DNA of 64,000 bases, from contig NZ_LMPF01000004.1 in assembly GCF_001424345.1 (NCBI RefSeq), positions 226,803 to 290,802 on the forward strand. The letters are read 5' to 3'. Position numbers and translations under genes: made by a program. The DNA comes from Burkholderia sp. Leaf177 (GTDB lineage Bacteria > Pseudomonadota > Gammaproteobacteria > Burkholderiales > Burkholderiaceae). The notes beneath the pieces were generated by a model. It saw only the letters and a list, made by a program, of their open reading frames with translations. It had not been told where the DNA came from and did not search any database. Shown piece after piece: positions 154 to 44,270 of this stretch; the first letter of the stretch is position 1, and each line of letters opens with the position of its first letter.

Positions 154-288
154 TGCCGCACGGCTGCCATCACGAGCAGCCCTCACTGCCTGCATCTCGC
201 GGTTCGACGTTGGGCCTCGGATATAATTGGCAGTGAATATTCAATTAATCCCCGCTGATTGCAATGCAAATGCGGTGGCAAGTTATCT

Positions 289-295
289 AAAGGAG
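289..295 (+). promoter_or_regulatory. Ribosome binding site that sets a TTG start for gmd
   Basis: AAAGGAG lies six bases before the TTG at 302. Starting there gives the N-terminus [14 protein letters not shown], which matches where GDP-mannose dehydratases normally begin. A TTG at 227 in the same frame would add 25 residues with no family resemblance and has no comparable ribosome binding site. Confidence 0.7.
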
Positions 296-301
296 TTGGA
301 A

Positions 302-1336
302 TTGACGAGCGCAGTGGTAACTGGAGTGACTGGGCAGGACGGAGCATATCTCACACAGCTGCTGCTGGATCGCGGCTACGAGGTGTACGGAACTTACCGG
401 CGCACGAGCTCGGTGAATTTTTGGCGTATGAACGAGCAAGGCGTGCTCGACCATCCGAAACTTCATCTCGTCGAGCATGACCTGACCGACCTCGGCGCGA
501 CCATCCGCTTGCTGGAAAAAGCGAAGCCGCGTGAGGTGTACAACCTTGCCGCGCAAAGCTTCGTGGGCGTTTCCTTCGATCAGCCCGCGACCACTGCCGA
601 GATCACCGGCGTCGGCGCGCTGAACGTCCTGGAAGCCATCCGGATTGTCGACCGCTCGATCCGCTTCTATCAGGCGTCGACGTCCGAGATGTTCGGCAAG
701 GTCCAGGCGATCCCGCAGAAAGAAGACACGCCGTTTTATCCGCGTAGTCCTTACGGTGTTGCCAAGCTTTACGCGCACTGGATTACGATCAACTATCGTG
801 AGTCCTACGATATTTTTGGTTCGAGCGGGATCTTGTTCAATCACGAATCTCCGCTGCGCGGGCGCGAATTTGTAACGCGGAAAATTACGGATTCCGTGGC
901 GAAAATCTCCTTGGGCCAACTCGACACCATCGAGCTGGGCAACCTCGATGCGAAGCGCGACTGGGGTTTTGCCAAGGAATATGTTGAAGGTATGTGGCGA
1001 ATGCTGCAGGCCGATACCCCTGATACCTTCGTGCTCGCGACGAACCGTACCGAAACGGTCCGCGATTTCGTGACAATGGCTTTCAAGGCTATTGGAACGG
1101 ACGTTCAATGGCGCGGCGCAGGCGAGACTGAAGAGGGCGTGGACGCCACCAACGGCAAGACCCTGGTACGGGTCAATCCGAAGTTTCATCGTCCTGCAGA
1201 GGTTGAATTGCTGATCGGCGACCCATCCAAGGCGAAGGAAGTATTGGGCTGGGCGCCCAAGACCACATTGGAAGAATTGTGCAAGATGATGGTCGAAGAA
1301 GATATACGCAGAAACAAGACGGGATTTTCCTTCTAA
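302..1336 (+). CDS. gmd: GDP-mannose 4,6-dehydratase
   Basis: This cytoplasmic short-chain dehydrogenase/reductase converts GDP-D-mannose to GDP-4-keto-6-deoxy-D-mannose, the branch point to GDP-D-rhamnose, GDP-fucose or GDP-perosamine. The NADP-binding signature [11 protein letters not shown] sits at residues 7-17. The active site shows STSEMFG and the YxxxK pair in [12 protein letters not shown] (Tyr151, Lys155). The C-terminal half keeps the family features [21 protein letters not shown] and [23 protein letters not shown]. The TTG start is chosen from the ribosome binding site at 289-295 and yields 344 residues, a normal length. The obvious downstream enzyme in this window is the RMD-like reductase at 55-56 kb, so D-rhamnose is the likeliest product, either for the O-chain or for cepacian (where the equivalent gene is called bceN). 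A terminator-like hairpin follows. Confidence 0.94.
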
Positions 1337-1858: not shown

Positions 1859-3223
1859 ATGCCTTTTGTAGTGGATCCATCCATGGTTTATGAAGCATTA
1901 AAGCTTATTCACAATGGCGCTTTCGTGGCCGTTTATTCCTCGGCAGACCGTCCGCTGCCCGTTACGTCGTGGTTGACCGAACAAGGCTGGCGCGGAGTGA
2001 GCATTGACGCCGCAGCCAGTCCCGCGAAGTCTTCCATCGTCCCGGCCGACGGCGCTGGACCGTCGGGCCGGACGTACAACGTAGTCGGGGATCCGGACGT
2101 GGAAGCGTTTTCGCGCACGCATTCCTTGTCGGCTATTCTTGACACGGCGTTCAAAGGCGACATTCACTTTCTAAGCGTCGATGCCTCCGATCTCGGGCAG
2201 CAAGCACTTGCCGATATCGACCTGTCGGTTCGGCGCCCTTGGATCGTTCTCATTTATCAACCGGACGGGAATGGCAGCATCGAACAAATGGTGGAGTGGA
2301 AGGCGGCAATGAAAAAGTCTGATTACACAACCTTGTTCGAGTCGCCTAGTCATTGTTTGTATGTGGCTGCCGAGCACGCGGAATTCGTATTGCAGGGCAG
2401 ATTTGGTGAGGACTTCGGGCGCGCGAGCCAGGCGTCTGGAGTTGGTGGTCCGTCGACGCATCTTGCAACGGCCGACGGCGCGACGCAGGACTTGAGTAAT
2501 CCGGCACGTAGTGAGGTCTCCAAAGCGATGCAGCATGCTGTCAGGCATGGTGACGAGATCGAAGTCGAGTTGCGACTCGCGAGGATCGAACGCGCCCATT
2601 TGCAAAGCCGTATGGAAACCGCCGAAGCGTGGGCAAGGTCGTCGGCTGAGTGGATCAAAGACGCCGAGACTCGCGCCGAGCGTGCGGAGCGCCGCGCTAA
2701 TTCATCGTCTTCATGGATCAATCGTCTCGAGCTCCGGCTTCGCGGCGTTTCCAGCACACTGGCGCAGACTGAAAGAGAAATTGCGAGCTTACGGGATCGG
2801 CTCGAGCACTCGGATCTTGACCGGGCTTCGCAAGCCAGCACCATCACCGCGCTGGAAGGTAGCCTTGAGGCTTCTGAACGTGCGCGCAATGAGCTTGAGC
2901 AGCGTATGTCGGCCATTCTCAGTAGCACGTCGTGGCGGCTTGCGGCTCCGTTGCGGTACATCCTCGGACCGTTTGGCCTGCGGATTCGCCGCTGGGTACC
3001 AAGCGCTTTCCGTCGTCGGCCCGATCCGGACACTCAGCCAGTTCCCGAATTCCCCGAAGCCCGCGCCAGTGCGGCAGATCCTGTGCAGCCATCTCCGGGC
3101 CATGAGTCGGTAGCCCCTGCGCCTTCATCGACAACCGTTCCCGTGTTGCAGCCGCAGCGCGTCCGCATGTACGCGGACATGTTAAAAAATGGACGTGAAC
3201 CGACTACTTCGGAGCAAGCTTGA
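1859..3223 (+). CDS. Degenerate FkbM-type methyltransferase fused to a coiled coil with a SWRL..PLR tail
   Basis: Residues about 10-175 follow the FkbM methyltransferase plan: a first strand, then GWRG, then a strand reading IHFLSVD, then RRPWIVLIYQ, then a C-terminal LYVAAEH. At the first strand, where family members have the SAM-binding DVGA, this protein reads AVYSSAD. The following acidic GWRGINVEP is GWRGVSIDA. It may therefore bind no cofactor. Residues about 225-360 are rich in heptad-like charged and hydrophobic residues (coiled coil). They are followed by SSTSWRLAAPLRYILG, a motif often found behind coiled coils in O-antigen enzymes. The end is Pro-rich. The stop overlaps the start region of the next glycosyltransferase, so the two are probably co-translated. 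I infer a scaffold or length-control role beside the glycosyltransferase. The start is uncertain; ATG 1882 is an alternative. Confidence 0.6.
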   Translation: MPFVVDPSMVYEALKLIHNGAFVAVYSSADRPLPVTSWLTEQGWRGVSIDAAASPAKSSIVPADGAGPSGRTYNVVGDPDVEAFSRTHSLSAILDTAFKGDIHFLSVDASDLGQQALADIDLSVRRPWIVLIYQPDGNGSIEQMVEWKAAMKKSDYTTLFESPSHCLYVAAEHAEFVLQGRFGEDFGRASQASGVGGPSTHLATADGATQDLSNPARSEVSKAMQHAVRHGDEIEVELRLARIERAHLQSRMETAEAWARSSAEWIKDAETRAERAERRANSSSSWINRLELRLRGVSSTLAQTEREIASLRDRLEHSDLDRASQASTITALEGSLEASERARNELEQRMSAILSSTSWRLAAPLRYILGPFGLRIRRWVPSAFRRRPDPDTQPVPEFPEARASAADPVQPSPGHESVAPAPSSTTVPVLQPQRVRMYADMLKNGREPTTSEQA

Positions 3224-3225
3224 CG

Positions 3226-6200
3226 ATGCGCGTTGTCATAGATTTGCAGAGTGCCCAGGGAGCGAACCGTCTGGAGGCCACCGGCCAAAACGCCCTTGCA
3301 TTTACACAGGCGTTCGCCAAGCTTGCGGGCGCTCGTGAAGTTCTGGTGGTATTGAGCGACGGCATCTACGAAACAGTTGAACCGATACGCATGGCGCTGG
3401 CGGACAGCGTACCTCACGATCGAATCATAGTATTCCCTGTTCCCGCCGCACACAGCCAGTCTGGCCGCGCAGTTGCTTCCGAATGGACTTTGCGGGCGGC
3501 TGAAAAAATACGTGAAGCGTTCATTGCGGATTTGCGGCCGGACGTTGTGTTGATATTGGGCCTGTTCGAAGGCCTGACAGATGACTTGTCGGTCAGCATC
3601 GGCAGCTTCGAGCGCTCGGCGCCGACTGCGGTCTTGCTCCATGAGCTTTTGTCGGCAGACGAAGCAAGCACCGTTTTGCTGGATGACGCGACTCGCAAGT
3701 GGTACCGCCGGCACATCATGTTCGCACGTGTCGCGGACCGGATCATGACCGTCTCATCGTCGATGCGAACAGAAGCCATCGAGCGGCTGCAGCTGGATCC
3801 GCAAAAGGTGATCGCGTTGTCGCATTGTCCGGTCGCCTATCCCGGGTCCGATTGCGGCGCTGAGGATCGCGACTCGTTGTTGGCGCGGCTTGGATTGTCC
3901 TCGCGCTTTGTCCTCGTCGACGCGGTGCACGCCGACGCCGCCACGCTGCGCGGCGTGCGAAAGCGGTTCGCCGCGTTACCTCCTGCGTTGCGCGAGGGAC
4001 TGACGATTGCGATCGCCGGGGATACAACGGAAGTGATGGGCGAGCATGTTGTTTATCTGCCTGGCTTGTCCAATGGCGAGCGCCAGATCCTTTCGGGGTG
4101 GGCGGCAGCCTGCGTGTTCAAGCACGGTTCGGAATTGTCGCGAGATGCGAACTTCATGGCCACGCTGAAAGCCGGTGCGCCTGTGGTTCTCATTTCTGAA
4201 ACGGGCGCGGCTGTGTCTGGCAAGTCTGTTGCTGAGCCCATGTGTACGGACATGGCAGGATTTTCCAGCGCGCTGGAATCCTTGCTGGCCGATGGGGCTG
4301 AACGGGCCACGTTGAGCATGCTTGCTCTACGCCGCGCGCAATCGCTGATGTGGACCGATGCCGCGGAACGAGCGTGGGCAGTTTGCAGCGAATTGCATGA
4401 AGCGCACGACGCTGAACGTGTTGCGCCTGCTCACGCGCCCGTCAGACGGCCGAGGATGGCATATTTCAGCCCGTTGCCGCCGGCTCAGTCCGGCATTGCC
4501 GACTACAGCGCGGTGCTGTTGCCTGAACTCGCGTTTTACTACGAAATCGACGTGATTGTCGATACGCTCGAGTGTTCCGCCGACGCGGTGAGCACGTGCT
4601 TTGCCATTCGTGACCTTGAATGGTTCGAAGCGCATGCCGGCGAGTACGATCGGGTGATCTATCACATCGGCAACTCGCCTTTTCACCACTACATGCTTTC
4701 GGCATTCGACCGGTATCCGGGAACTGTCGTGTTGCACGACTTTTATCTGGGACATCTGCGGATGCATCCAGCCGGCGCCGATCCCGCATACATGCGGGCA
4801 TTGTACGAATCGCACGGTTTCGGTGCGGCCGCTGACGCATTGCGCAACCCGGACGCCTTCTGGCTTTATCCCACCAATCTGCCGTTGCTCACGCGGGCTC
4901 ACGGCGTGCTTGTCCACTCCGAACATGCGATCGATCAGGCGCGGATGTGGTACGGCGATCACATTAGCAAGTACATCCGTCGCGTACGTTTTCTCCGGGC
5001 CGGCGTAAGACCAGACCGCGTTTCGGCCCGGGCGCGCCTGGGTATTTCCGAGAATGACTTCGTTGTTTGTTCGTTTGGGCAAGTCGGCCCGACCAAGCTC
5101 AGTCATGTGTTGCTGTCCGCATGGGCACAGTCCCGCCTGACGAGTGGTCAACACTGCAAGCTCGTGTTTGTCGGCGGCAGCGCCGGCTTGTATCGCGACA
5201 CGATGATTCGCGGTATCGAACGCTGCGGTTCTACTTACGACGTCATGATGACAGGGTTCGCGCCGGCTGAACTCTATAGGGACTATCTCGACGCTGCTGA
5301 TCTCGCGGTGCAGCTGCGCACGGACTCGCGCGGGGAAACATCGGCGGCGGCGTTTGACTGTCTTGCTCACGAAGTGCCACTTATTGTGAACGCGCACGGA
5401 AGTATGAGCGAATTGCCGGACGACACCGTGCTGCGCCTGGTGGACAATTTCGATGAAGCCGAACTGACCGCCGCGCTCGAGCAACTTTGGGGCGACCGTT
5501 CGCTGTGTCAGCAACTGACTCGGTCGGGGTCCGCTTACCTTGCGTTGAACCACGCGCCTCATGCTGCAGCCGCCGATTTCGCTCGTGCGATCGAATTTTT
5601 CGAGGAGGAAAGCGGGTCGGCGCGGCGCGCGCGTCTTATCGATTCGATCACGAAGATCCGGGTCGAAACGGCAGTTGAGGATTCCGACGCTTTGTCTGTC
5701 GCTCGCGCGCTGGACGAAGCCCTTCCCGACATCACGGTGCGCACGTTGTTCGTGGATGTATCGGCGGTTGCGCGGGTTGATTTGAGAACTGGCGTGGAAC
5801 GGGTCACTCGCGGAATCTTGCTTGAACTGCTGAAGAGTCCGCCGGCTGGCTGGAGAGTCGAACCGGTTTATTTAAGCGACGGCGCTGACAAAGGCTTCCA
5901 CTACGCGCGACGATACGTGCAGCGACTGCTGGGCCTGGAAGTGCTCGAACTCGAGGACGAACCTGTCAGGCCGCTGCCAGGCGACATCCTCTTTGGCCTT
6001 GATCTTTATTGGCCGGCTTATATGGCCGAAGAGGCATATCAACAATGGCGCGCGCTGGGTGTCTCCATCCAGTTTGTCGTGTATGACATCCTGCCTGTCC
6101 TTCAGCCGCATCATTTCCCCGATGGATTTTCGGAGAACTTCGAGAAATGGCTGCGTCTGATTACCAGCGTGTCGGACGGCCTGCTATGTATTTCGCAGGC

Positions 6201-6912
6201 GGTCGCAAATGAGGTCGCCGCATGGGTGAACGGACATCCGGCGCCGCGAGCGTTGCCGCTGCAGATCAAGGCATTTCCGCTCGGTGCCGACTTGCAGACG
6301 AGCGCGCCCACCAGAGGCGTGCCCGACGATGCTGCGCAACTCCTGCAAACTATCGCCTCGCGGCCTTCGGTGCTGATGGTCGGTACGGTCGAACCGCGTA
6401 AGAAACATCTTGACGCGTTGGCTGCAATGGACCGTCTCTGGTCCCGCGGGACCGACGTAAATCTTGTAATTGTCGGGAAGCAAGGCTGGTTGACGACGGA
6501 CGACGCGGCACGGCTTGCCGATCACCCCGAACGGGACAAGCGGTTTTTCTGGCTCTCCGGTGTATCAGATGAATTTCTCGATGCCATTTATAAAGCGTCG
6601 ACTGTTCTGCTCGCGGCATCAAGCGGCGAGGGATTCGGCCTGCCGCTGATCGAAGCCGCGGTTCACGGCGTTCCGGTCATCGCACGCGATCTGCCGGTGT
6701 TCAGGGAAGTGGCGGGTGACAGCGCGACTTATTTCGCCGGGGACGACTCAGCGCTTGCCGATGCACTCGGAAAATGGCTTTTCGATACAAATAATGGAAA
6801 TCGGGCGCGACTATCGCGAGATATAAAATTGGTTACCTGGGAACAAAGTGCAACTGCACTGAAGCGTTTCATGTTTGAGATACGTTCGCGAAATGGCGAC
6901 GTAACGCGCTAA
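3226..6912 (+). CDS. Large three-domain GT4-type glycosyltransferase, likely the O-chain polymerising enzyme
   Basis: This protein of about 1228 residues contains three GT-B modules. Module 1 (about 1-400) has the Rossmann-like outline but lacks the E-x7-E motif, so it looks degenerate. Module 2 (about 410-815) opens with PRMAYFSPLPPAQSGIADYS and carries RGETSAAAFDCLAHEVP. Module 3 (about 835-1228) opens with TLFVDVSAVARVDLRTGVER, has VGTVEPRKKH and the full EGFGLPLIEAAVHGVPVIA motif. Two-module enzymes of this kind (E. coli WbdA) polymerise mannan O-chains with two linkages from GDP-mannose. Here I infer that modules 2 and 3 build a mannan or rhamnan. No membrane helix is visible, so it should act on the cytoplasmic face. 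ATG 3226 is chosen, with GGAG at 3211-3214. TTG 3220 is closer to that site and could also serve. Confidence 0.8.
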   Translation: MRVVIDLQSAQGANRLEATGQNALAFTQAFAKLAGAREVLVVLSDGIYETVEPIRMALADSVPHDRIIVFPVPAAHSQSGRAVASEWTLRAAEKIREAFIADLRPDVVLILGLFEGLTDDLSVSIGSFERSAPTAVLLHELLSADEASTVLLDDATRKWYRRHIMFARVADRIMTVSSSMRTEAIERLQLDPQKVIALSHCPVAYPGSDCGAEDRDSLLARLGLSSRFVLVDAVHADAATLRGVRKRFAALPPALREGLTIAIAGDTTEVMGEHVVYLPGLSNGERQILSGWAAACVFKHGSELSRDANFMATLKAGAPVVLISETGAAVSGKSVAEPMCTDMAGFSSALESLLADGAERATLSMLALRRAQSLMWTDAAERAWAVCSELHEAHDAERVAPAHAPVRRPRMAYFSPLPPAQSGIADYSAVLLPELAFYYEIDVIVDTLECSADAVSTCFAIRDLEWFEAHAGEYDRVIYHIGNSPFHHYMLSAFDRYPGTVVLHDFYLGHLRMHPAGADPAYMRALYESHGFGAAADALRNPDAFWLYPTNLPLLTRAHGVLVHSEHAIDQARMWYGDHISKYIRRVRFLRAGVRPDRVSARARLGISENDFVVCSFGQVGPTKLSHVLLSAWAQSRLTSGQHCKLVFVGGSAGLYRDTMIRGIERCGSTYDVMMTGFAPAELYRDYLDAADLAVQLRTDSRGETSAAAFDCLAHEVPLIVNAHGSMSELPDDTVLRLVDNFDEAELTAALEQLWGDRSLCQQLTRSGSAYLALNHAPHAAAADFARAIEFFEEESGSARRARLIDSITKIRVETAVEDSDALSVARALDEALPDITVRTLFVDVSAVARVDLRTGVERVTRGILLELLKSPPAGWRVEPVYLSDGADKGFHYARRYVQRLLGLEVLELEDEPVRPLPGDILFGLDLYWPAYMAEEAYQQWRALGVSIQFVVYDILPVLQPHHFPDGFSENFEKWLRLITSVSDGLLCISQAVANEVAAWVNGHPAPRALPLQIKAFPLGADLQTSAPTRGVPDDAAQLLQTIASRPSVLMVGTVEPRKKHLDALAAMDRLWSRGTDVNLVIVGKQGWLTTDDAARLADHPERDKRFFWLSGVSDEFLDAIYKASTVLLAASSGEGFGLPLIEAAVHGVPVIARDLPVFREVAGDSATYFAGDDSALADALGKWLFDTNNGNRARLSRDIKLVTWEQSATALKRFMFEIRSRNGDVTR

Positions 6913-7040: not shown

Positions 7041-8138
7041 ATGCTACAACTTAATGATCTCTCGGCCCGGATTGCCCGGCATCAGGTTGGTCTGAAGGCG
7101 GCTGTGGATCGTGTCATTTCCAGCGGATGGCTGGTAATGGGTCCAGAGGTCAAACGGTTCGAGCAGGCGTTTGCCGGGTATCTCGGCGCGAGCCATTGCC
7201 TCGGTGTAGCAAACGGAACCGAAGCCATTGAACTGGCCCTTCGCGCCATCGGCGTAAAGGCTCGAGATCGCGTCGCGACGGTCGCGAACGCAGGCGCCTA
7301 TACCACAACCGCTTTGCTCGCGAACGGTTCGGTGCCGCTTTTCATCGACGTAGATCTGGAGACTCAGGTCGCAACGCTGGACCAGGTGCGTCGCGCCATG
7401 GATCAGGGCGTGAGCGCGGTTGTCGTCACGCATTTGTATGGGCGGGCCGTGCCGGAGATTATGGAGATCGCGCGGCTTTGCGCGGAACGCGGCGTACCGC
7501 TTCTCGAAGATTGCGCACAAGCGCACGGAGCGCGTATTGCCGGACGTCAGGTCGGCACCTTTGGAACAGTCGCAAGTTTCAGCTTCTATCCAACGAAAAA
7601 TCTCGGCGCCTTGGGTGACGGCGGTGCCGTCGTGACAAACGATCCGGTTGTTGCCGAGAAGGTCGCGAAATTGCGGCAGTACGGCTGGTCAAGCAAATAT
7701 TGCATCGACACCGCGGGTGGCAAGAACAGCCGGCTCGACGAAATGCAGGCTGCGATCTTGTCCGAGTTTCTCCCTGCGCTCGACGAGACCAACGGTCTTC
7801 GGCGTTCTATCGCAGCGCGATACAGCAAGGAAATCAACGTGGATAACCTCGTGGTGCCGCCAGTCGGGGGCGCAGAATACGTCGCCCATTTGTACGTTGT
7901 GCGAACTCCGAATCGCGATTCATTACGCGAGCATTTGCGTCAGCAGGGTGTTGCGTCAGATATTCACTATCCAATTCCGGACTATCGCCAGCCCATGTTT
8001 GGCCAGCAGTTCGCGGATCTCAGCCTGACCAGCACGGACCGCCTGGCAAGCGAGATTTTGACCTTGCCGCTGTATCCGGAAATGAGCGCCGAGTCGGTCG
8101 ACAAGGTTGTGTCGGCGGTGAACGGTTGGGCTCCATGA
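7041..8138 (+). CDS. fdtB: PLP-dependent sugar aminotransferase, DegT/DnrJ/EryC1/StrS family (FdtB/QdtB-like)
   Basis: The enzyme should transfer an amino group from glutamate to C3 of a dTDP-3-keto-6-deoxyhexose. It has 365 residues, the usual length. The PLP lysine is Lys186 in FYPTKNLGALGDGG. LLEDCAQAHGA supplies the aspartate that contacts the pyridine nitrogen. The N-terminal VISSGWLVMGPEVKRFE and the C-terminal SDIHYPIP are typical of the 3-amino sugar branch. It overlaps the next gene by four bases (ATGA). The same operon contains rfbA, rfbB and a ketoisomerase/acetyltransferase fusion, which fixes the pathway. Sequence reading alone cannot tell Fuc3N from Qui3N. GGTGAGG before ATG 7041 is a good ribosome binding site. 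Confidence 0.88.
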   Translation: MLQLNDLSARIARHQVGLKAAVDRVISSGWLVMGPEVKRFEQAFAGYLGASHCLGVANGTEAIELALRAIGVKARDRVATVANAGAYTTTALLANGSVPLFIDVDLETQVATLDQVRRAMDQGVSAVVVTHLYGRAVPEIMEIARLCAERGVPLLEDCAQAHGARIAGRQVGTFGTVASFSFYPTKNLGALGDGGAVVTNDPVVAEKVAKLRQYGWSSKYCIDTAGGKNSRLDEMQAAILSEFLPALDETNGLRRSIAARYSKEINVDNLVVPPVGGAEYVAHLYVVRTPNRDSLREHLRQQGVASDIHYPIPDYRQPMFGQQFADLSLTSTDRLASEILTLPLYPEMSAESVDKVVSAVNGWAP

Positions 8139-9079
8139 AGTATTCGGTTGTCGTCCCGGTTTATAAGAACGAAGCGTCCATCGGCCGGCTCGTCGAGGCG
8201 ATCAGCAACATGAATCGCGAGCTCAACGGCGAAATGGAAGCAGTTTTTGTCGTCGATGGAAGCCCTGACCGGTCTTTCGAATACCTGCGTAACGCAATTG
8301 ACTCCGTTGATTTCCCGGTCCAGCTGATCGCACATTCGCGAAACTTCGGGTCGTTTCCGGCTATCCGAACGGGACTTGCTGCCGCCCGCGGCCAATACTT
8401 TGGTGTGATGGCCGCCGATCTTCAAGAGCCTCCCGAGCTACTCGTCGCGTTTTTCACCGCTTTGTCCGCCGATGAGTGCGACGTCGTGATCGGTACCCGG
8501 GTAGCACGGGACGATCCGTTCATGTCCAGACTTGCGTCGGGAATTTTCTGGGGTTTGTATCGCCGTCTGGTTGTACGCGACATGCCTGAAGGCGGCGTGG
8601 ACGTGTTTGGTTGCAATCGCGCTTTTCGCGATCAGCTCCTGATGCTGGAGGAATCGCGTTCGTCGCTTATCGCCCTCATTTTCTGGCTCGGATTCCGCCG
8701 AAAGCTCTGCGGGTACGAGCGGCAGGTGCGCCAGGAGGGCAAGTCGGCGTGGACGCTGCGCAAGAAGATCGACTACATGATGGACAGCATCTTCGCGTTT
8801 ACCGACTATCCCATTCGCATGCTCATCAGGCTTGGGGCCATAGGCTCTTTTGTATCGATACTGCTGGGCATTGTCGTTCTGGTCGCGCGTCTGTCCGGCG
8901 CCATTACCGTACCTGGATATGCCGCGACGGTCTTGGTGGTCCTGGTCCTGGGCGGGCTCAATCTGCTAGGGATCGGACTTGTCGGCACGTATGCATGGCG
9001 CGCGTACGAAAACAGCAAGCAGCGGCCTCTTGCCGTAGTTTCAATGAAGGTCGAGAACAAGGTGGGAATGCATGTCTAA
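8135..9079 (+). CDS. GT2 polyprenyl-phosphate sugar transferase (GtrB/DPM1-like)
   Basis: The N-terminal GT-A domain starts [14 protein letters not shown] and has VVDGSPDRS and the catalytic-type motif [12 protein letters not shown]. These are hallmarks of enzymes that move a sugar from a nucleotide to undecaprenyl phosphate. Residues about 230-300 form two membrane helices, as in GtrB. ATG 8135 overlaps the aminotransferase stop; a TTG at 8126 is less likely. The position inside a dTDP-3-amino sugar operon and just before a GtrA gene suggests it makes Und-P-linked Fuc3NAc or Qui3NAc for transfer on the periplasmic side. The substrate is inferred from neighbours only. Confidence 0.82.
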
Positions 9080-10007
9080 TCCGGCTTTCATCCACGAATC
9101 CGCCGACGTCCAGTCTTCCAGCATCGGCGAGGGAACGCGCGTGTGGCAATACGTTGTCGTTTTGCCGAAGGCGAAGATTGGGCGGGACGTCAATTTATGC
9201 TCGCATTGTCTCGTTGAGAATGACGTGGTGATCGGCGATCGCGTCACGGTCAAGTCGGGCGTTTATCTCTGGGACGGAATCCACATTGAGGATGACGCGT
9301 TTATCGGCCCGAACGTCACGTTCACCAACGATAAATTTCCCCGATCCAAAGCTTATCCCGAGGCCTTTCCGCAGACCAGGATTGAAAAAGGCGCATCGAT
9401 TGGCGGTGGGGCAGTGTTGTTGCCTGGCATCACGATTGGCGCGGGCGCCATGGTCGGCGCAGGCGCTGTAGTGACAAAATCGGTACCGCCTTTTGCAATC
9501 GTCGTTGGCTCGCCAGCCCGGGTAACGGGATATGTGGAGGGCGCAGCAGGTGCGGAATGCCCGGCAGAAACGGCAACCGAATCTCCTGTTCCAGTTGGCG
9601 TGGGCGGCGTGTGCTTGTACCGGTTGAAACGGTTCGGCGATTCGCGTGGCGCGCTCACGGTCGGTGAGTTCAATCGCGATATCCCGTTCGAAGTGAAGCG
9701 TTACTTCGCCATCTTCGACGTACCGGCAGAAAAAGTCCGGGGCGAGCACGCCCACCGCGCTTGTCATCAGTTTCTGGTGTGTATCAAGGGCTGCTGTGCC
9801 GTTGTTGTGGACGACGGCAAATCACGCCGCGAAATACTGCTCGATGCACCGGAAAAAGGCCTTCACTTGCCGCCGCTGACGTGGGGCACGCAATACAAGT
9901 ATTCTCCCGATGCCGTTTTGCTGGTGTTCACGTCCGATTATTACGACAAGGACGACTACATAACTGACTACGCCACATTCCTGGGAATGACGGCCACGGT
10001 CTCGTGA
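9072..10007 (+). CDS. fdtD: Fused sugar N-acetyltransferase and dTDP-4-keto-6-deoxyglucose 3,4-ketoisomerase (FdtD/WxcM-like)
   Basis: Residues 1-157 form a left-handed beta-helix acyltransferase with many hexapeptide repeats (for example [34 protein letters not shown]), ending [13 protein letters not shown]. Residues about 180-311 form a cupin of the FdtA/QdtA type with the paired histidines [15 protein letters not shown] and the ending [14 protein letters not shown]. Bifunctional proteins with this order are known (Shewanella FdtD, Xanthomonas WxcM). Together with rfbA, rfbB and the aminotransferase this completes the route to dTDP-3-acetamido-3,6-dideoxy-hexose. It overlaps the preceding GT2 gene by eight bases and the following gtrA-like gene by four. 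Galacto versus gluco product is undecided. Confidence 0.88.
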
Positions 10008-10435
10008 AGCAAAACGTGTTTCCGTTGAGCATCGTCGCTCAGAGACGGTTGCGCTTCCTGGTTGGAGGCGCGACCAATACGGCGTTCACCTACGGCATGT
10101 ATCTGCTGCTGAAGCTTGTACTGCAGTATCAGATTGCCTATCTGATTGCCTATTGCTGCGGTGTCATATTCGCTTACTGGTTCAACGCCGTTTACGTATT
10201 CAAAGTTCCACTCTCATGGAAAGGGGCGTTGTCTTATCCGGTCGTCTACGTTGTTCAATATGGCGCTTCGGCCGTTTTGCTTGAACTGCTTGTAAAGCTC
10301 GCGAAGATCAACAGCACGTTCGCGCCGCTTATTGTCACGGTGTGCATGGTGCCGCTCACTTATGTATTGAGCAAAGTCTTGCTCGAGTGGAGTGGCCGCC
10401 ACAAGACCGAAAAACCATTCAATGCAGACAAGTAG
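10004..10435 (+). CDS. GtrA-family membrane protein, putative Und-P-sugar flippase
   Basis: This protein of 143 residues has four hydrophobic segments and the GtrA family opening [21 protein letters not shown], followed by [11 protein letters not shown]. GtrA proteins are thought to turn undecaprenyl-phosphate-linked sugars to the periplasmic face. The start is a GTG whose last base pairs overlap the previous stop (GTGA). The downstream membrane gene begins inside its 3' end. Its place between a GtrB-like and a GtrC-like gene completes a three-component glycosylation set. Confidence 0.85.
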
Positions 10436-12719
10436 GGACTCTCGCCTGGACGTGGCTCCGCTGAGGTTTAATTCAACCTTTGCGCGAGTAATTCGCCATG
10501 AATGGAAAGTATGGCTACCGCTTGCCATATTAAGTTTCTTTCTGGCGAGCGTTCTCATGTCAGGTTGGCCTGCCGGACTTCTGCCGCAGTTGCAGTTTCC
10601 CTATGTTTACCAGCACGATGGTCTGAGCCATTCGTGGCTTATTGAGCGTGTCATAGAAGGCTGGATCTTTGACAACGACCGAAGTGGATTCCCTTTCGGC
10701 TCCAGTTTCCTGGACTATCCAGGTTCTGATAGTGGAAGCGATGTTGTCCTCAAGATTTTAGGCAGCCTGACAGGCCACTATTACAGCGCGCTGAATCTGT
10801 ATTTCCTGTTTGGTTTTCCGCTCACGTTTTTTTGTGCGTACTTTGCGTTGCGTGCTTTTGGCTTGACCGCGGGGCCGGCAGCGTCCGCCGCTTTACTGTT
10901 TGATTTCTTGCCATTCCATTTCCTAAGAATCGAGCATCTGTATTACACCTGGTACTTCGTCGTTCCCTTATATTTTTATATCGCTCTTCGGATATTCAAC
11001 GTGCGACGGGTAGCCAGACTCGGCAGACAAACAGCAGGGCGATTGTTCCTAGCGTTTGTTGCCATGATGGCAATAGGTTCGTTTGGCATCTACTACGCGG
11101 CATTCGGTATCTTGTTGATCGCTGTTTCGGCGCTTGCTGCAACGTTGAAGACGAACCGGTTCTCCCATTGGTGGGCAAGCACGTTTGTGATCGCCGGCGT
11201 GGTGTTCGGCGTTCTGCTGAACGTGTTGCCGAACGTGGCCTATACAAAGGCGAATGGCATAAATGAGGAAGTCGCGATTCGCAACTCCGGCGATTCGGAA
11301 CTGTATGGGCTCAAACTCATGCAACTGATCTTGCCGCGGCAAGACCATAGAATTCCGCAATTCGCTAAGATCAGAGATCGTTACGATCAATCAAGCCCGC
11401 TCACCAATGAAAATTCCTGGGCGACGCTGGGCGTCGTGGGGTCCATCGGCCTCGTTATCTCGGCCGTCGCATTGCTTGCAAGCTTGTCTGGGCGCAGAGT
11501 CAATCGGCATCTTGCGCTTCTCACTGTATTTATCAGCATCCTGTTTCTTCTTGGAACAATCGGCGGGTTGGGAGCCTTGTTCTCATTTGTGGTTTCATCG
11601 TCAATACGAGCCTGGAACCGGATCAGCGTTTTTATTGGTTTCGCCGCGCTGGCAGTTTTTTTTCTGTCAATCCAACTGGGATTTTCCAGGGCGCGTCCAG
11701 CACTGCAGAGACCCGCTCCCAAGAATGCGGTGTTGACGATCCTCGTCCTGGCCGGGCTGTTCGATCAAACGATTGCCCCTGCCCGCGAGGCGATCGAGCG
11801 GACACAAAACGCGTTCAATATGGACCGCGACTTTGTCCAGCGCATGGAGGCAATGCTGCCGCCCCGCAGTGCGATCTATCAGTTGCCGTACATGCCTTTT
11901 CCGGAGTCGCCAACGCTCGTTCGGCTGGAAAGCTACGACCTGACGACGGGTTTTCTCCAGTCGCGCGCGTTGCGGTGGAGTTATGGCGGCATGCGAGGGC
12001 GGCCGGGCGATTTGTTCTACCGGGCGTTATCGAAGGAATCGCTCAAGACGCAAATCAATGTGGCGCGGCGCCTTGGATTCGCGGGCGTCACCGTGGATCG
12101 GCGCGGTTTTGCTGATAATGGCATTGAGGCGATCGAGGGGCTTACGGCGCTGTGCGGGGCGCCGGCGATCACGCGTGCAGACGGCGAGATCGTGTTTTTT
12201 GCCATCAGGAATCCCCAAGTTGTCGATTTCCACGGGGCGAATGCCTATGAAATCATGCGGCGAGCAGGCTATATCGCCGACGACCTGGGACCGAGATATC
12301 CGGCCACCCTTTCCGAGGGAATCGACTTTGCCCGCAATGGCTGGCCAGCTTTCCTTCGAGACGAGTCTGGCCTGGCATTTCGCGAGCCGTGGGGCCGATG
12401 GTCGGATGCCAATGTTGATTCCAGTGTCAAACTTGGTTTTTTTGAGGATTTGCCTCAAAGGTTTACGCTCGCCCTGACGATCGTTCCTTTTGGCCCGAAC
12501 GCGGGGAAGGACCTTGCCGTTTCCATCGGCGAAGAACGCTATTACCTGAAGATGACTCCGGCCGCTTCCGAGGTGAAAATCGCGGTAGATTTAAAGGGAC
12601 GCAGGGCCGATTCGATAGAACTCAGCCCGCCTTTGCCAACATCGCCGAGGGAACTCGGTCTCAGCAGCGATTTGCGCAAGCTCGGGGTGGGCTTGATTCG
12701 TTTGAGAATAGAGGAGTAG
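10422..12719 (+). CDS. Polytopic GT-C-like membrane glycosyltransferase with a C-terminal periplasmic beta domain (GtrC-type role)
   Basis: About 765 residues. A first helix (about 25-45) is followed by an extracytoplasmic loop with YQHDGLSHSW and FPFGSSFLDYPG, then about ten helices to residue 450. The soluble end (about 455-765) includes a final module with FREPWGRWSDA and PLPTSPRELGLSSD. The same signature occurs in the protein at 27983-30082. An acidic first periplasmic loop is typical of GT-C enzymes that use polyprenyl-phosphate sugars. Serotype-specific GtrC enzymes are unrelated in sequence to one another but share this layout. ATG 10422 overlaps the gtrA-like gene; a GTG at 10392 would add ten residues. 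rfbB follows after three bases. I infer that it attaches the acetamido sugar to the O-chain. Confidence 0.65.
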   Translation: MQTSRDSRLDVAPLRFNSTFARVIRHEWKVWLPLAILSFFLASVLMSGWPAGLLPQLQFPYVYQHDGLSHSWLIERVIEGWIFDNDRSGFPFGSSFLDYPGSDSGSDVVLKILGSLTGHYYSALNLYFLFGFPLTFFCAYFALRAFGLTAGPAASAALLFDFLPFHFLRIEHLYYTWYFVVPLYFYIALRIFNVRRVARLGRQTAGRLFLAFVAMMAIGSFGIYYAAFGILLIAVSALAATLKTNRFSHWWASTFVIAGVVFGVLLNVLPNVAYTKANGINEEVAIRNSGDSELYGLKLMQLILPRQDHRIPQFAKIRDRYDQSSPLTNENSWATLGVVGSIGLVISAVALLASLSGRRVNRHLALLTVFISILFLLGTIGGLGALFSFVVSSSIRAWNRISVFIGFAALAVFFLSIQLGFSRARPALQRPAPKNAVLTILVLAGLFDQTIAPAREAIERTQNAFNMDRDFVQRMEAMLPPRSAIYQLPYMPFPESPTLVRLESYDLTTGFLQSRALRWSYGGMRGRPGDLFYRALSKESLKTQINVARRLGFAGVTVDRRGFADNGIEAIEGLTALCGAPAITRADGEIVFFAIRNPQVVDFHGANAYEIMRRAGYIADDLGPRYPATLSEGIDFARNGWPAFLRDESGLAFREPWGRWSDANVDSSVKLGFFEDLPQRFTLALTIVPFGPNAGKDLAVSIGEERYYLKMTPAASEVKIAVDLKGRRADSIELSPPLPTSPRELGLSSDLRKLGVGLIRLRIEE

Positions 12720-12722
12720 AAA

Positions 12723-13784
12723 ATGCTTTTAGTAACCGGTGGTGCAGGGTTTATCGGTGCGAACTTTGTGCTTGACTGGCTCGCGGCCAACGACGAACCC
12801 GTGGTCACGCTCGATGCACTGACGTACGCCGGCAACCTTGAAAGCCTGGCTTCGCTGCAAGGTGACCCGAGGCATATCTTTGCGCACGGAGATATCACGG
12901 ACCGGACGCTGGTTGACAGCCTGTTACGGCAATATCGTCCGCGGGCAGTCATTCATTTTGCTGCCGAAAGCCATGTTGACCGTTCAATCCTCGGTCCGGC
13001 GGCTTTTATAAAGACGAACGTAGAAGGGACGTTCAATCTGCTCGATGCCACCCGCGCGTATTGGGATGCGCTTGCTGGTGACGAGAAAGCGGCATTCAGG
13101 TTTCTGCACGTATCGACAGACGAAGTTTATGGCTCGCTTGGACCTGACGACGCGCCATTCACCGAACGCAACGCGTTTGAACCGAACAGCCCCTATTCTG
13201 CGAGCAAGGCGTCGAGCGACCATCTGGTTCGCGCCTGGCACCACACGTACGGGTTGCCCGTTCTGACGACCAATTGCTCGAATAACTACGGCCCTTTGCA
13301 GTTCCCCGAGAAGCTTATTCCGTTGATGATCGTGAGCGCGCTGGCAGGTAATCCGTTACCCGTATACGGGGATGGCCGTAACGTCCGTGACTGGCTGCAC
13401 GTTGGCGACCATTGCTGCGCTATCCGCACTGTCCTGGCCGGAGGACGCGTAGGCGAGACGTACAACGTGGGCGGATGGAACGAGATGGCAAATGTCGACG
13501 TCGTCAAAACCGTTTGCAGTCTGCTCGATGAACTAAGGCCGGACGCGGCGGGCAGCTACGAGCGTTTGATCACCTACGTCAAAGACCGGCCGGGCCACGA
13601 CCGGCGATACGCCGTCGATGCGCGCAAAATTGAGTCCGAACTCGGCTGGCGACCAGCGGAAACATTCGCAACGGGCATCCGCAAGACGATCATGTGGTAT
13701 CTCAATAACGAGGCGTGGGTGTCCAACGTGCAGAGCGGTGCTTATCGCGACTGGATCAACAAGAACTACAGGGGAAAAGAATGA
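12723..13784 (+). CDS. rfbB: dTDP-glucose 4,6-dehydratase
   Basis: Forms dTDP-4-keto-6-deoxy-D-glucose from dTDP-glucose. The NAD-binding motif TGGAGFIG is at residues 5-12. The catalytic Thr132-Asp133-Glu134 sits in STDEVYGSL, and Tyr158/Lys162 in [31 protein letters not shown] and the 353-residue length are standard for RmlB. GGAG lies just before the start, and the gene begins three bases after the previous stop. It overlaps rfbA by four bases. With no rfbC or rfbD in the window, its product most likely feeds the ketoisomerase at 9.6-10.0 kb rather than L-rhamnose synthesis. Confidence 0.96.
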
Positions 13785-14671
13785 ACCGGAAAGGAATCAT
13801 CCTGGCGGGTGGCTCCGGCACGCGTTTGCATCCGGCAACGCTGGCGGTGTCGAAGCAGCTCTTGCCGATCTACGACAAGCCGATGATTTACTATCCGCTC
13901 GCCACGCTCATGCTTGCCGGGATTCGGGAGGTGTTGATCATTTCCACGCCGCAGGACACCCCTCGCTTCCAGCAATTGCTTGGAGATGGCAGCCAGTGGG
14001 GCATGTCGCTGCACTATGCGGTCCAGCCGTCTCCGGACGGGCTGGCGCAGGCTTTTGTCATCGGCGAATCGTTTCTTGCAGGGGCGCCGAGCGCGCTCGT
14101 GCTGGGAGACAATATTTTCTTTGGGCACAACCTCAAGGAAATTCTGCTCGACGCCGACCGGCGCGACGCGGGCGCAAGCGTTTTCGCTTATCCGGTGAAA
14201 GATCCTGAGCGGTACGGCGTGGTGCAGTTCAAGGACGGCAAGGCGGTGAGCATTGAAGAAAAGCCGGGCAGGCCGAAGTCGCGGTATGCCGTGACGGGCA
14301 TGTATTTCTACGATGCGGATGTCGTCGAGATTGCGAAGGCAGTCGAGCGTTCGCCGCGCGGTGAATATGAGATTACCGACATCAATCTGCGATATCTTGA
14401 AAAGGACCTGCTTTCGGTGCAAACACTCGGCCGCGGTTTTGCCTGGCTCGACACGGGAACTCACGACTCGATGCTCGAAGCGTCGCATTTTATTTCGACT
14501 ATCGAGCACCGTCAGGGCTTCAAGATTTCCTGCCCGGAAGAGATTGCATGGCGCCAGCGCTGGATTTCGGACGCGCAGCTTGAAGAGCTGGCCAAACCTC
14601 TCGCCAAGTCTGGATATGGAAAGTACTTGTCAAGCCTGCTAGCCGACGGCGGCATTAGTTCCGGGTGGTGA
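13781..14671 (+). CDS. rfbA: Glucose-1-phosphate thymidylyltransferase
   Basis: Couples dTTP and glucose-1-phosphate to dTDP-glucose, the entry to the dTDP-sugar pathway. The nucleotide-binding motif [16 protein letters not shown] is at residues 5-20. [44 protein letters not shown] and [14 protein letters not shown] are diagnostic for RmlA. The protein has 296 residues. ATG 13781 has AGGGGAAAAG before it and overlaps the rfbB stop. An in-frame upstream extension to 13715 lies inside rfbB and is not credible. It is the last gene of the 7.0-14.7 kb operon and converges on the minus-strand gtrA-like gene 37 bases later. Confidence 0.96.
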
Positions 14672-22893: not shown

Positions 22894-22897
22894 AACT

Positions 22898-24538: not shown

Positions 24539-25903
24539 ATGGATCGGATCATTGTAGAAGGGCTGGGGAAAGCTTATAAGCGGTACACGTCGAGATTCGG
24601 TCGTCTTCGCGAGTGGGCCATACCGCGTTCCACGCCACGCCACTCGCTTACGTGGGTTCTGAAAAGCATTTCGTTTCGCGTCGCCGACGGTGAATCGGTA
24701 GGCATCCTGGGAGTGAACGGTGCTGGCAAAAGCACGCTCCTCAAGCTGATCACCGGTACTACTCAGCCCAGCACTGGCAGCGTGGCAATCCATGGCCAGG
24801 TTGCGGCGTTGCTGGAACTTGGTATGGGATTCCATCCCGATTTCACGGGACGCCAGAATGTTTTCATGGCTGCGCAGCTACAGGGGCTGACCACCGCGCA
24901 GATAGAAGAACACTTGGCCGAAATCCAGGATTTCGCCGACATTGGCGACTATTTTGAAATGCCGGTTCGCGTCTATTCCTCTGGCATGCAAGTGCGCCTC
25001 GCCTTCGCAGTCGCCACAGCCATTCGTCCCGACGTGCTTATTGTCGACGAAGCACTGTCCGTCGGCGACGTTGCGTTTCAGGCGAAATGCTTTCGCCGGA
25101 TCCGGGAATACAAAGAGCAGGGCACGACGTTGTTGCTGGTGACCCACTCGCTCGATGACGTCATTAAACATTGCCAAAAGGCAATCGTGCTCGATGGCGG
25201 CTTCATCGTCGATGAAGGGGAACCTCGCGAAGTCGTCAACAGGTTCCGCGACCGCCTGTTCGGACGAAGCCGCAAGATGTTGGGTGGCGAAGACTCCGGT
25301 GCTGTTGATGCCCAAACGGAAGAACCGGAGCAAGAAGAGGACAATTTGTCTGCATCTGGTGCCGCTCTTGTTGTGTCACGCGTGTCGAACGTGCTACCGC
25401 ACGGTGTGACGCTATCTGACGAAGATGTGTTCGCCTCGCGCCCGCTTTATCAGAACATCGAGCATCGGTGGGGCGGTGGTGGCGCGCGGATTACCGACTA
25501 CGCGATTGTCACCCCCGACAAGGCCTATCCGACGGTTGTCGAGGTCGGCGAGAAACTGACGGTTGCGTTCAAGGTTGTGTTCGACCGGGCGTACTTTGCG
25601 CCGGTGTTCGGGCTGATGATCAAGACGCTGGAGGGGCTGGTAGTTTATGGCACGAACTCCCATTTGCGCGGCGAGCAGATCGATGAAATCCTTATTGGCG
25701 ATGCAGTCACCTGCCAGTTCACGTTTCCGGTCAAGCTCAATGCGGGACACTATCTGATTTCAATAGGTGTGAGCGAATCAGCGCTCCCCGGGACGGACAT
25801 TCCGCTCGATCGCCGCTACGACGCGATCCTGCTGAACGTGACATCGTCCGAATCGTTCCTTGGTTTGTTCGACTTTGGCGCCCGTTGCTCACTGGAAAAA
25901 TGA
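24539..25903 (+). CDS. wzt: ABC transporter ATPase for O-antigen export with C-terminal polysaccharide-binding domain
   Basis: Residues 1-245 form the nucleotide-binding domain. Walker A GVNGAGKS is at 58-65, the signature YSSGMQVRLAF starts at 146, and Walker B VLIVDEALS is at 166-174. After an acidic linker (about 255-285), residues about 290-454 form an immunoglobulin-like domain with VEVGEKLTVAFKVVF, VYGTNSHL and AGHYLISIGVSE. This is the Wzt-C domain, which in E. coli O9a recognises the terminated non-reducing end of the chain. A domain of this kind predicts that export depends on a chain cap. The overlapping next gene encodes that cap-forming enzyme. The permease partner is probably the Wzm-like protein truncated at the window start. 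Confidence 0.93.
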   Translation: MDRIIVEGLGKAYKRYTSRFGRLREWAIPRSTPRHSLTWVLKSISFRVADGESVGILGVNGAGKSTLLKLITGTTQPSTGSVAIHGQVAALLELGMGFHPDFTGRQNVFMAAQLQGLTTAQIEEHLAEIQDFADIGDYFEMPVRVYSSGMQVRLAFAVATAIRPDVLIVDEALSVGDVAFQAKCFRRIREYKEQGTTLLLVTHSLDDVIKHCQKAIVLDGGFIVDEGEPREVVNRFRDRLFGRSRKMLGGEDSGAVDAQTEEPEQEEDNLSASGAALVVSRVSNVLPHGVTLSDEDVFASRPLYQNIEHRWGGGGARITDYAIVTPDKAYPTVVEVGEKLTVAFKVVFDRAYFAPVFGLMIKTLEGLVVYGTNSHLRGEQIDEILIGDAVTCQFTFPVKLNAGHYLISIGVSESALPGTDIPLDRRYDAILLNVTSSESFLGLFDFGARCSLEK

Positions 25904-36315: not shown

Positions 36316-36694
36316 CATTCAATAAACCAATGACAACAAGCCTTTGGAATGTAGTCGGAATTAATTACCTGAAATTGTAAGAATAAAATATGATATGAAC
36401 CGCTGAAATTCTACTGTTTTGTCATATTCGGGCAAACCATTAGGATGGTATGCTTCCTGCACGCATTCTTCATATCCTATGACGTAGGACGAAATGTGCG
36501 CCGAATTGGATACTGTTGTGCACCACGGCGCGGATTAGATGCATTTGGAATGCACCAACTTGTTGTTTTTGGCAAACGTTTGCGAATACTTCGAGTTTCT
36601 TGATTCAGCGTCTGGCGGGTGGATCCCACCTCAACGCATGTTCAACGCCTGGTTCAACTTTTCGCAGAGCGGTCCGACTGCATGGAGCAACCCA
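36316..36694. other. AT-rich spacer between the O-antigen block and the bce block
   Basis: About 380 bases, much poorer in GC than the surroundings. No gene is credible here. An open extension of the next frame back to 36539 has no ribosome binding site and no family resemblance. The stretch should carry the promoter of the transposase-derived gene and contains a perfect palindrome at 36572-36583. Confidence 0.5.
36572..36583. promoter_or_regulatory. Perfect 12-base palindrome, candidate operator
   Basis: GCAAACGTTTGC equals its own reverse complement and lies 112 bases before the ATG of the transposase-derived gene in an AT-rich stretch. LacI-type regulators bind palindromes of this style, but a single site gives weak support. 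Confidence 0.3.
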
Positions 36695-44235: not shown

Positions 44236-44270
44236 ACGTCAATGCGCGTCAAAACAACCGGAATCGAATC

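What the first reader, a model, noticed from the sequence alone, without database searches (positions are those of the whole stretch)
7041..14671. Gtr-type periplasmic glycosylation system embedded in a complete dTDP-3-acetamido-3,6-dideoxyhexose pathway
Seven overlapping or nearly overlapping genes contain everything to make dTDP-Fuc3NAc or dTDP-Qui3NAc (rfbA, rfbB, ketoisomerase/acetyltransferase fusion, aminotransferase). They also contain a GtrB-like Und-P transferase, a GtrA-like flippase and a large GT-C-like membrane enzyme. No rfbC or rfbD is present, so L-rhamnose is not the aim. The simplest reading is a dedicated module that decorates the exported O-chain outside the cytoplasm with an unusual amino sugar. 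I know of classic Gtr systems for glucose, but not of one described with this sugar in this group.
Basis: partly seen in the sequence, partly recalled or inferred. Interest (0 to 1): 0.8.

Follow-up and report, generated by a model that had tools for sequence, protein, structure and literature searches.

The report
Amino-sugar branch-adding system, Xanthomonas type
Seven adjacent genes of a Caballeronia-like bacterium match the gene set by which Xanthomonas is thought to make the rare amino sugar Fuc3NAc and branch its surface O-chain with it, and here too they likely attach that sugar to the exported chain outside the inner membrane; the system is of a known kind, but relatives of its final enzyme sit beside other sugar pathways in other bacteria, so it may be a plug-in decorating tool.

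Summary
In detail: window 7041-14671 encodes DegT aminotransferase, GtrB-like GT2, acetyltransferase/3,4-ketoisomerase fusion, GtrA, GT-C, RmlB, RmlA. It is not new in kind. The first five genes have the order and domains of Xanthomonas wxcK-L-M-N-O (36-57% identity), whose wxcK and wxcN mutants lack FucNAc branches on their rhamnan O-antigen. Wzm, Wzt, Gmd, an Rmd-like and a WbdD-like protein point to an ABC-exported, rhamnose-containing chain as acceptor. The ketoisomerase resembles FdtA more than QdtA, favouring Fuc3NAc. The large enzyme, called 'sugar translocase' in Xanthomonas, models as a GT-C transferase with a C-terminal CBM29-like domain. New here: across 62 loci this GT-C family neighbours FdtA-type genes (11), CDP-3,6-dideoxyhexose genes (29), another dTDP pathway (11) or none seen (11). 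For the first two kinds the GT2 tree splits cleanly by sugar; the GT-C tree does not, although its formal rejection rests on one distant locus. New member of a known kind, moderate interest.

The parts
7041..8138 (+). wxcK/fdtB-like sugar 3-aminotransferase (DegT family)
   Evidence: PF01041 322 bits; best solved relative 7b0d 276 bits, QdtB 3frk 248 bits; 48-64% identical to the same gene in 9 of 11 FdtA-type loci, 40% in L022 and L037
8126..9079 (+). wxcL, GtrB/ArnC-like GT2, predicted Und-P-Fuc3NAc synthase (ATG start at 8135 more likely than TTG 8126)
   Evidence: match to solved GtrB sll0501 and ArnC over residues 4-306; 52-75% identical in 10 of 11 FdtA-type loci, 36% in L037; GT2 tree
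9072..10007 (+). wxcM/fdtD: N-acetyltransferase (hexapeptide) fused to dTDP-6-deoxy-3,4-ketohexulose isomerase (FdtA)
   Evidence: PF00132 + PF05523; 4mzu 417 bits, 2pa7 119 bits, QdtA entries 80-87 bits; residues compared
10004..10435 (+). wxcN, GtrA family, predicted flippase of the Und-P-linked sugar
   Evidence: PF04138 71 bits; 36-58% identical in 11 of 11 FdtA-type loci
10422..12719 (+). wxcO-like GT-C transferase; membrane part residues about 21-598 (window about 10482-12215)
12279..12716 (+). C-terminal CBM29-like beta-sandwich (Pfam DUF7024) of the GT-C, predicted to bind the acceptor chain
12723..13784 (+). rmlB, dTDP-glucose 4,6-dehydratase, only copy in the genome
   Evidence: TIGR01181 484 bits over cut-off; next best genome match 64 bits
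13781..14671 (+). rmlA, glucose-1-phosphate thymidylyltransferase, only copy in the genome
   Evidence: TIGR01207 495 bits over cut-off; next best genome match 30.5 bits
1..153 (+). 3' end of wzm (ABC-2 O-chain exporter permease); the gene begins 741 bases left of window position 1
   Evidence: PF01061 83 bits; L085:3563-4456
227..1336 (+). gmd, GDP-mannose 4,6-dehydratase (backbone precursor)
   Evidence: PF16363 457 bits; 75-78% identical in the 6 Xanthomonas loci
3220..6912 (+). multidomain GT4 glycosyltransferase, predicted backbone synthase
   Evidence: PF00534, two stretches; relatives in neighbouring loci
24539..25903 (+). wzt, ABC exporter ATPase with Wzt_C
   Evidence: PF00005 + PF14524; 46-50% identical in the 6 Xanthomonas loci
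25885..27759 (+). WbdD-like methyltransferase/kinase, predicted chain terminator
   Evidence: methyltransferase families; APH 23.0 bits, just under its cut-off of 23.2; 33-46% identical in the 6 Xanthomonas loci, over 31-98% of the query
55102..56070 (-). rmd-like reductase, predicted GDP-D-rhamnose synthesis
   Evidence: 45-50% identical to 4 of 4 reductases found beside gmd in other loci; no curated family over its cut-off

Best explanation
The seven genes match the Xanthomonas wxcK-L-M-N-O module plus rmlB and rmlA, and they are predicted to make dTDP-Fuc3NAc, load it onto undecaprenyl phosphate, flip it across the inner membrane and likely transfer it as side branches onto an already exported, probably rhamnose-containing O-chain. 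Steps. RmlA and RmlB make dTDP-4-keto-6-deoxyglucose (family assignment shown; activity inferred; they presumably also feed L-rhamnose with the distant RmlC/RmlD). The FdtA half of WxcM isomerises it, WxcK aminates C3 and the other half of WxcM acetylates (inferred from families). WxcL forms Und-P-Fuc3NAc (inferred). WxcN (GtrA) flips it (inferred; flippase activity of such proteins has not been shown directly, PMC11127046). WxcO, a modelled GT-C enzyme, transfers the sugar in the periplasm; its C-terminal CBM29-like domain would hold the polymer (fold from a model, binding inferred). The polymer would be made in the cytoplasm from GDP-D-rhamnose (Gmd, Rmd-like) and exported by Wzm/Wzt.
For: Family and solved-structure matches for the genes. 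Same five genes in the same order in 9 of 11 FdtA-type loci, 6 of these Xanthomonas. Published: in Xcc B100 wxcK::Tn5 and wxcN::Tn5 no FucNAc was detected in LPS and rhamnose rose, and the authors conclude that the rhamnan is made independently of the branches (PMC4878081, abstract and passages); X. hortorum wxcK and wxcO mutants resist a phage thought to bind the Fuc3NAc branch (PMC12573098, passages). GT-C fold plus CBM29-like domain. The GT-C + CBM architecture is also that of ORF12 (GT136), a shown O-chain decorator whose CBM binds the unmodified backbone, although it was dispensable for catalysis there (PMC11127046, passages and one section). Wzm, Wzt, Gmd, Rmd-like, WbdD-like in the locus.
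Against: No sugar analysis of this organism is in my results. The acceptor is inferred: other chains (exopolysaccharide export genes at 43060-46493) could receive the sugar, and in one X. citri strain Fuc3NAc was reported in the core oligosaccharide while the O-antigen was a plain rhamnose polymer (PMC8042644, passage). [quoted passage not shown] The CBM match is at about 10% identity, and a jelly roll alone does not prove sugar binding. The GT-C shares only 38-40% with Xanthomonas WxcO, and the two Xanthomonas WxcO scanned miss the Pfam DUF7024 model, though a profile comparison finds the domain in one of them. In Xanthomonas WxcO is annotated as a sugar translocase.
Confidence: 0.8

Rival explanations
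1. Same donor machinery, different acceptor: the Und-P-sugar is used on the exopolysaccharide encoded further right in the window, on LPS core or on a protein, not on the O-chain.
For: Exopolysaccharide export genes (Poly_export and Wzc-like) at 43060-46493; DUF7024 resembles the end of OpgB, which modifies periplasmic glucans (OpgB's role recalled); in one X. [quoted passage not shown] the window holds further membrane proteins with DUF7024-like ends, so several acceptors are possible.
Against: In the 6 Xanthomonas loci the same genes sit near Gmd, Wzt and a WbdD-like gene, as here, and in Xcc B100 the sugar is reported on the O-chain. Among FdtA-type loci 9 of 11 have a Wzt relative (over 140 bits) and 8 of 11 a Gmd relative (over 350 bits) in the fetched stretch.
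Confidence: 0.13
2. The sugar is Qui3NAc or another N-acyl variant rather than Fuc3NAc.
For: Relatives of the aminotransferase and acetyltransferase serve both sugars (QdtB and QdtC are among the matches). At the WG position the window differs from A. thermoaerophilus FdtA, which has WH. The FdtA-type loci of Massilia and Pseudoduganella carry a different acetyltransferase half (59 and 51 bits, against 212-256 in the other full fusions).
Against: Ketoisomerase half: 184 bits to 4zu4, 119 to A. thermoaerophilus FdtA (2pa7), 80-87 to the QdtA entries. At two positions that I recall as stereochemistry-setting it has the same R and G as 4zu4 and the four Xanthomonas WxcM aligned; FucNAc was measured in Xcc B100. 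The QdtA sequence itself was not displayed by any search.
Confidence: 0.12
3. The large protein is a translocase, as annotated in Xanthomonas, and a cytoplasmic enzyme attaches the sugar before export.
For: The published annotation of WxcO is 'sugar translocase', 'putative carbohydrate translocase' or 'putative integral membrane protein'.
Against: The model matches lipid-sugar-dependent transferases over 366-488 residues; a GtrA protein already fills the flippase role; in the wxcK and wxcN mutants long rhamnan is still made.
Confidence: 0.05

Closest known systems
Xanthomonas wxcK-L-M-N-O (region 3 of the wxc LPS cluster)
   Same: Same five genes, order and domain fusion; rmlAB, gmd and a wzt/WbdD-like pair in the same locus
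   Different: 38-40% identity at the GT-C; rmlB/rmlA here directly follow the GT-C on the same strand, whereas in the 6 Xanthomonas loci they lie on the other side of wxcK and on the opposite strand; rmlC/rmlD here are 12-13 kb away; host is Caballeronia-like
Gtr three-component systems of Shigella/Salmonella (GtrA-GtrB-Gtr type)
   Same: GT2 of the GtrB family, GtrA flippase candidate, GT-C transferase
   Different: Donor pathway for an amino sugar is built in; the chain is ABC-exported; the GT-C has a CBM-like tail
C. youngae O1 three-component ribofuranose system (GT136, PMC11127046, passages and one section seen)
   Same: GT-C with C-terminal CBM decorating an O-chain from an Und-P sugar
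   Different: There a prenyl-phosphate phosphoribosyl synthase and a MATE flippase; here GT2 with a predicted dTDP-sugar and GtrA
ArnC/ArnT (L-Ara4N on lipid A)
   Different: Acceptor is lipid A; nucleotide is UDP (recalled); no FdtA branch

Membership tests
Xanthomonas wxcK-O Fuc3NAc branch module | Five genes K-L-M-N-O in one run, M being an acetyltransferase/ketoisomerase fusion | tested here: met
   Order and domains in the window and in 6 of 6 Xanthomonas loci
Xanthomonas wxcK-O Fuc3NAc branch module | Rhamnan precursor genes (gmd, rmd) and Wzm/Wzt exporter in the locus | tested here: met
   Gmd; Rmd-like (40 kb to the right of rmlA); Wzm; Wzt. That the backbone is D-rhamnan is inferred
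Xanthomonas wxcK-O Fuc3NAc branch module | FucNAc side branches in the O-antigen, lost in module mutants | not testable with these tools
   Reported for Xcc B100
Gtr three-component system | GtrA family protein | tested here: met
   PF04138 71 bits, cut-off 26.1
Gtr three-component system | GtrB-type membrane GT2 | tested here: met
   Residues 4-306 of 317 align with GtrB sll0501
Gtr three-component system | GT-C transferase encoded alongside | tested here: met
   Model and fold comparison; activity not testable
Gtr three-component system | Donor is Und-P-glucose made from UDP-glucose (classical systems) | tested here: inconclusive
   Gene neighbourhood points to dTDP-Fuc3NAc instead; no assay
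dTDP-Fuc3NAc pathway | RmlA, RmlB, 3,4-ketoisomerase, 3-aminotransferase, N-acetyltransferase | tested here: met
   Family level only
dTDP-Fuc3NAc pathway | FdtA (galacto) rather than QdtA (gluco) ketoisomerase | tested here: inconclusive
   Scores and aligned residues favour FdtA; the decisive residues are recalled from the literature and QdtA was not aligned residue by residue
GT136 | Donor made by a prenyl-phosphate phosphoribosyl synthase and flipped by a MATE protein | tested here: not met
   The module's donor enzyme is a GT2 and its flippase candidate is GtrA
GT136 | Sequence similarity of the GT-C to ORF12 | not tested
   ORF12 sequence not at hand

The most novel reading that the evidence does not exclude
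The WxcO/DUF7024 enzymes form one family of periplasmic GT-C transferases that read the acceptor chain through a CBM tail and accept different deoxysugars from undecaprenyl phosphate. Which sugar is attached is set by the swappable upstream cassette (nucleotide-sugar genes plus cognate GT2 and GtrA): dTDP-Fuc3NAc here, CDP-3,6-dideoxyhexoses including yersiniose-like branched ones in Pseudomonas, Yersinia and Comamonas, dTDP-4-amino-4,6-dideoxy sugars in Herbiconiux. This would move many 3,6-dideoxyhexose branches from the cytoplasm to the periplasm and make O-chain decoration modular.
Probability: 0.5. Interest if true: 0.65.

Novelty: new member of a known kind. Interest (0 to 1): 0.42.

Why it matters
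It brings the Xanthomonas Fuc3NAc branch module into Caballeronia, where it is rare (a match spanning both halves of WxcM in 1 of 58 genus genomes, its own), and replaces the label 'sugar translocase' for WxcO by a testable one: a GT-C transferase with a sugar-binding tail. In Xanthomonas the branch is thought to be a phage receptor and to influence chain length, so knowing which enzyme attaches it matters. The wider pattern (one GT-C family, several deoxysugar pathways) would make it directly testable whether 3,6-dideoxyhexose branches are added after export.

Tried and rejected
L-rhamnose-only reading of RmlA/RmlB: rejected, because ketoisomerase, aminotransferase and acetyltransferase are encoded in the same run of genes; but the reverse claim, that L-rhamnose is not made, does not follow either.

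Multiple donor switches in the GT-C tree: weaker than it first looked. The quick tree of 65 rows needs 6 changes for the FdtA label, 4 of them forced by starred branches, but warns of long branches that meet. With 30 of 65 rows kept (35 dropped: long branches, unknown donor, near-duplicates) the careful tree needs 5 changes between FdtA-type and CDP-type, starred branches force 2, and 0% of 200 bootstrap trees have 1. Holding the nine FdtA-type rows together is rejected at p 0.001, but this rests on L037 alone: p 0.29 without L037, 0.0004 without L022, 0.38 without both. So at least one switch is supported, not five.

GT2 tree: 39 rows; rows with unknown donor, without a GT2 hit or with a GT2 score under 100 bits, among them all Herbiconiux and kin, were left out before the count. 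This tree too carries long-branch warnings.

Donor labels come from best phmmer hits to the window's genes and to L010's genes; a locus counts as CDP-type if it has any one of three genes, and four of the 29 lack an RfbH relative over 200 bits. Several loci are short contigs, so 'none seen' may mean cut off.

Organism: my first 16S query used 1500 bases of flank by mistake; repeated on the gene itself: 99.3% to Caballeronia sp. SBC2.

Literature: no paper in the held library contains DUF7024. Listings 13, 17, 32, 54, 55, 59, 60, 82 and 97 were seen, not read through. Passages were seen of PMC12573098, PMC4878081, PMC8042644, PMC11127046 (and one section), PMC3071791, PMC2238763, PMC9834719, PMC4153317 and PMC8533242; none of these passages gives WxcO a transferase role or describes a Fuc3NAc Gtr system. 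Most subscription papers are not held. Vorholter 2001 and Molinaro's structures were seen only as cited there; the FdtA/QdtA residue work and the FdtD paper are recalled.

Foldseek also ranks receptor-binding domains of bacterial toxins near the CBM-like domain; this reflects a common jelly roll and I draw nothing from it.


Full report
What is there. The window lies at C4:226803-290802 of a 6.8 Mb genome whose 16S rRNA gene is 99.3% identical to that of Caballeronia sp. SBC2, the best match among plasmid records. Seven + strand genes at 7041-14671 overlap by 4-14 bases or, once, are 3 bases apart. Family scans and solved relatives give: DegT aminotransferase; membrane GT2 of the GtrB/ArnC type; a fusion of a hexapeptide acetyltransferase with an FdtA ketoisomerase; GtrA; a 765-residue membrane protein ending in DUF7024; RmlB; RmlA.

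rmlC and rmlD lie at C4:220346-220855 and C4:220833-221804, 12-13 kb upstream of the module and outside the window. The module's RmlB and RmlA are the only copies in the genome; the next best matches score 64 and 30.5 bits against 824 and 669. So the absence of rfbC/rfbD from the window says nothing about L-rhamnose: the module must share its first two enzymes with that pathway if L-rhamnose is made at all. wzm straddles the left end of the window.

What it matches. Six Xanthomonas loci fetched here (L027-L030, L033, L034) carry the same genes in the same order as wxcK-L-M-N-O; identities to the window are 48-49% (K), 52-53% (L), 55-57% (M), 36-40% (N), 38-40% (O). In Xcc B100, Tn5 insertions in wxcK or wxcN remove detectable FucNAc from LPS and raise rhamnose three- to fivefold; the authors caution about polar effects (PMC4878081, abstract and passages). 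In X. hortorum wxcK and wxcO mutants resist a phage (PMC12573098, passages). The passages seen call WxcO a sugar translocase, a putative carbohydrate translocase or a putative integral membrane protein. PMC2238763 (passages) notes that in two other Xcc strains a different open reading frame stands in the place of wxcO, and already names a 36% identical relative in Yersinia bercovieri; the swap recalls the serotype-specific gtr genes of Shigella (recalled).

Which sugar. The ketoisomerase half scores 184 bits against 4zu4 (WxcM-like; recalled as FdtD of Shewanella denitrificans), 119 against FdtA 2pa7 and 80-87 against the QdtA entries. Around two positions that I recall as setting stereochemistry, the window reads DSRG and LTWG; the four Xanthomonas WxcM rows read DMRG and MIWG, 4zu4 reads DLRG and MTWG, and 2pa7 reads DSRG but AVWH. 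QdtA itself was not displayed. I take Fuc3NAc as likely.

The acceptor. Gmd, an Rmd-like protein at 55102-56070 (45-50% to four reductases that sit beside gmd elsewhere), Wzm/Wzt, large GT4 proteins and a WbdD-like protein suggest a rhamnose-containing chain exported by an ABC transporter. This is inference; no LPS structure of this strain is in my results. Against it: in one X. citri strain Fuc3NAc was reported in the core, with a plain rhamnose O-antigen (PMC8042644, passage).

Distribution. Of 150 genomes drawn from the family, 10 including the own match the GT-C at E <= 0.001, 5 of them with E below 1e-100; the 14 other same-genus genomes listed have none. A match spanning both halves of WxcM occurs in 1 of 58 genus genomes, the own; the best other match, in G188, covers residues 180-308 only. 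The module is thus rare in its genus, which fits acquisition by transfer.

Neighbourhood pattern. A scan of one genome per species returned 62 loci with a GT-C relative; its patterns were built from sequences 44-51% identical to the window protein, so the sample leans towards close kin. By relatives found within the fetched stretches (up to 10 kb each side, less at contig ends): 11 have FdtA-type genes, 29 have genes of the CDP-3,6-dideoxyhexose route (RfbH over 200 bits in 25, a YerE-like carboligase over 400 bits in 15), 11 (Herbiconiux and kin) have RmlA and/or RmlB relatives without FdtA, 11 have none; 0 of 62 have both FdtA and RfbH. A GT2 relative is present in 11, 27, 10 and 5, a GtrA relative in 11, 24, 1 and 6 of these groups. 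For L010 (Yersinia artesiana) NCBIfam names glucose-1-phosphate cytidylyltransferase, CDP-glucose 4,6-dehydratase and RfbH over their cut-offs; the aminotransferase of L051 is named dTDP-4-amino-4,6-dideoxygalactose transaminase, 476 bits, cut-off 375. GT2 proteins of the FdtA and CDP types split with one change and full support (39 rows). GT-C proteins do not (30 rows, 5 changes), but the formal rejection of one FdtA clade depends on L037. The window's GT-C is 49% identical to that of L006 but only 38-40% to Xanthomonas WxcO, and its nearest row in the tree is L003, a CDP-type locus.

Verdict. A real, complete and well-assigned module; a new member of the Xanthomonas wxcK-O kind, predicted to work like a Gtr system with an amino-sugar donor. 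Shown: genes, families, synteny, folds by model. Inferred: every enzymatic step, the sugar's stereochemistry, the acceptor and the role of the C-terminal domain.

Noticed in passing
14709-16171 (-): A second GtrA (PF04138) and GT2 (AglJ-like, below that model's cut-off) pair lies tail to tail with the module, so the locus may load a second lipid-linked sugar.
   Followed up: partly
19114-21624 (+) and 27983-30082 (+): Two more large membrane proteins end in DUF7024-like stretches (hhalign probability 43% and 97%; Pfam 27.9 bits, over the cut-off, for the second only), so up to three CBM-tailed enzymes may act on one chain.
   Followed up: partly
21664-24268 (-): An Acyl_transf_3 (OafA-type) protein next to a 455-residue membrane protein with a sub-threshold PMT_2 match: further candidate decoration enzymes.
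   Followed up: no
25885-27759 (+): WbdD-like protein right after wzt, with methyltransferase families and a kinase-like stretch just under its cut-off: a likely terminator of an ABC-exported chain.
   Followed up: no
36539-37645 (+): Reading frame with the DUF4096 part of an IS4/5 transposase between the O-antigen and exopolysaccharide genes.
   Followed up: no
L010, L012, L025 (Yersinia), L004, L005, L008, L011, L013, L016 (Pseudomonas), L014, L048 (Comamonas): CDP-3,6-dideoxyhexose genes with a YerE-like carboligase near GtrA, GT2 and the DUF7024 GT-C relative, suggesting periplasmic addition of yersiniose-like sugars (L010 checked by families; the others by phmmer).
   Followed up: partly
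L050-L058, L062, L063 (Herbiconiux and kin): A shorter GT-C relative (no DUF7024 in L051, the only one scanned) beside RmlA and/or RmlB and, in L051, a WecE-type aminotransferase, in Gram-positive Actinomycetota.
   Followed up: partly
L018, L019: In Massilia and Pseudoduganella the acetyltransferase half of WxcM is of another kind, hinting at a different N-acyl group or a replaced domain.
   Followed up: partly
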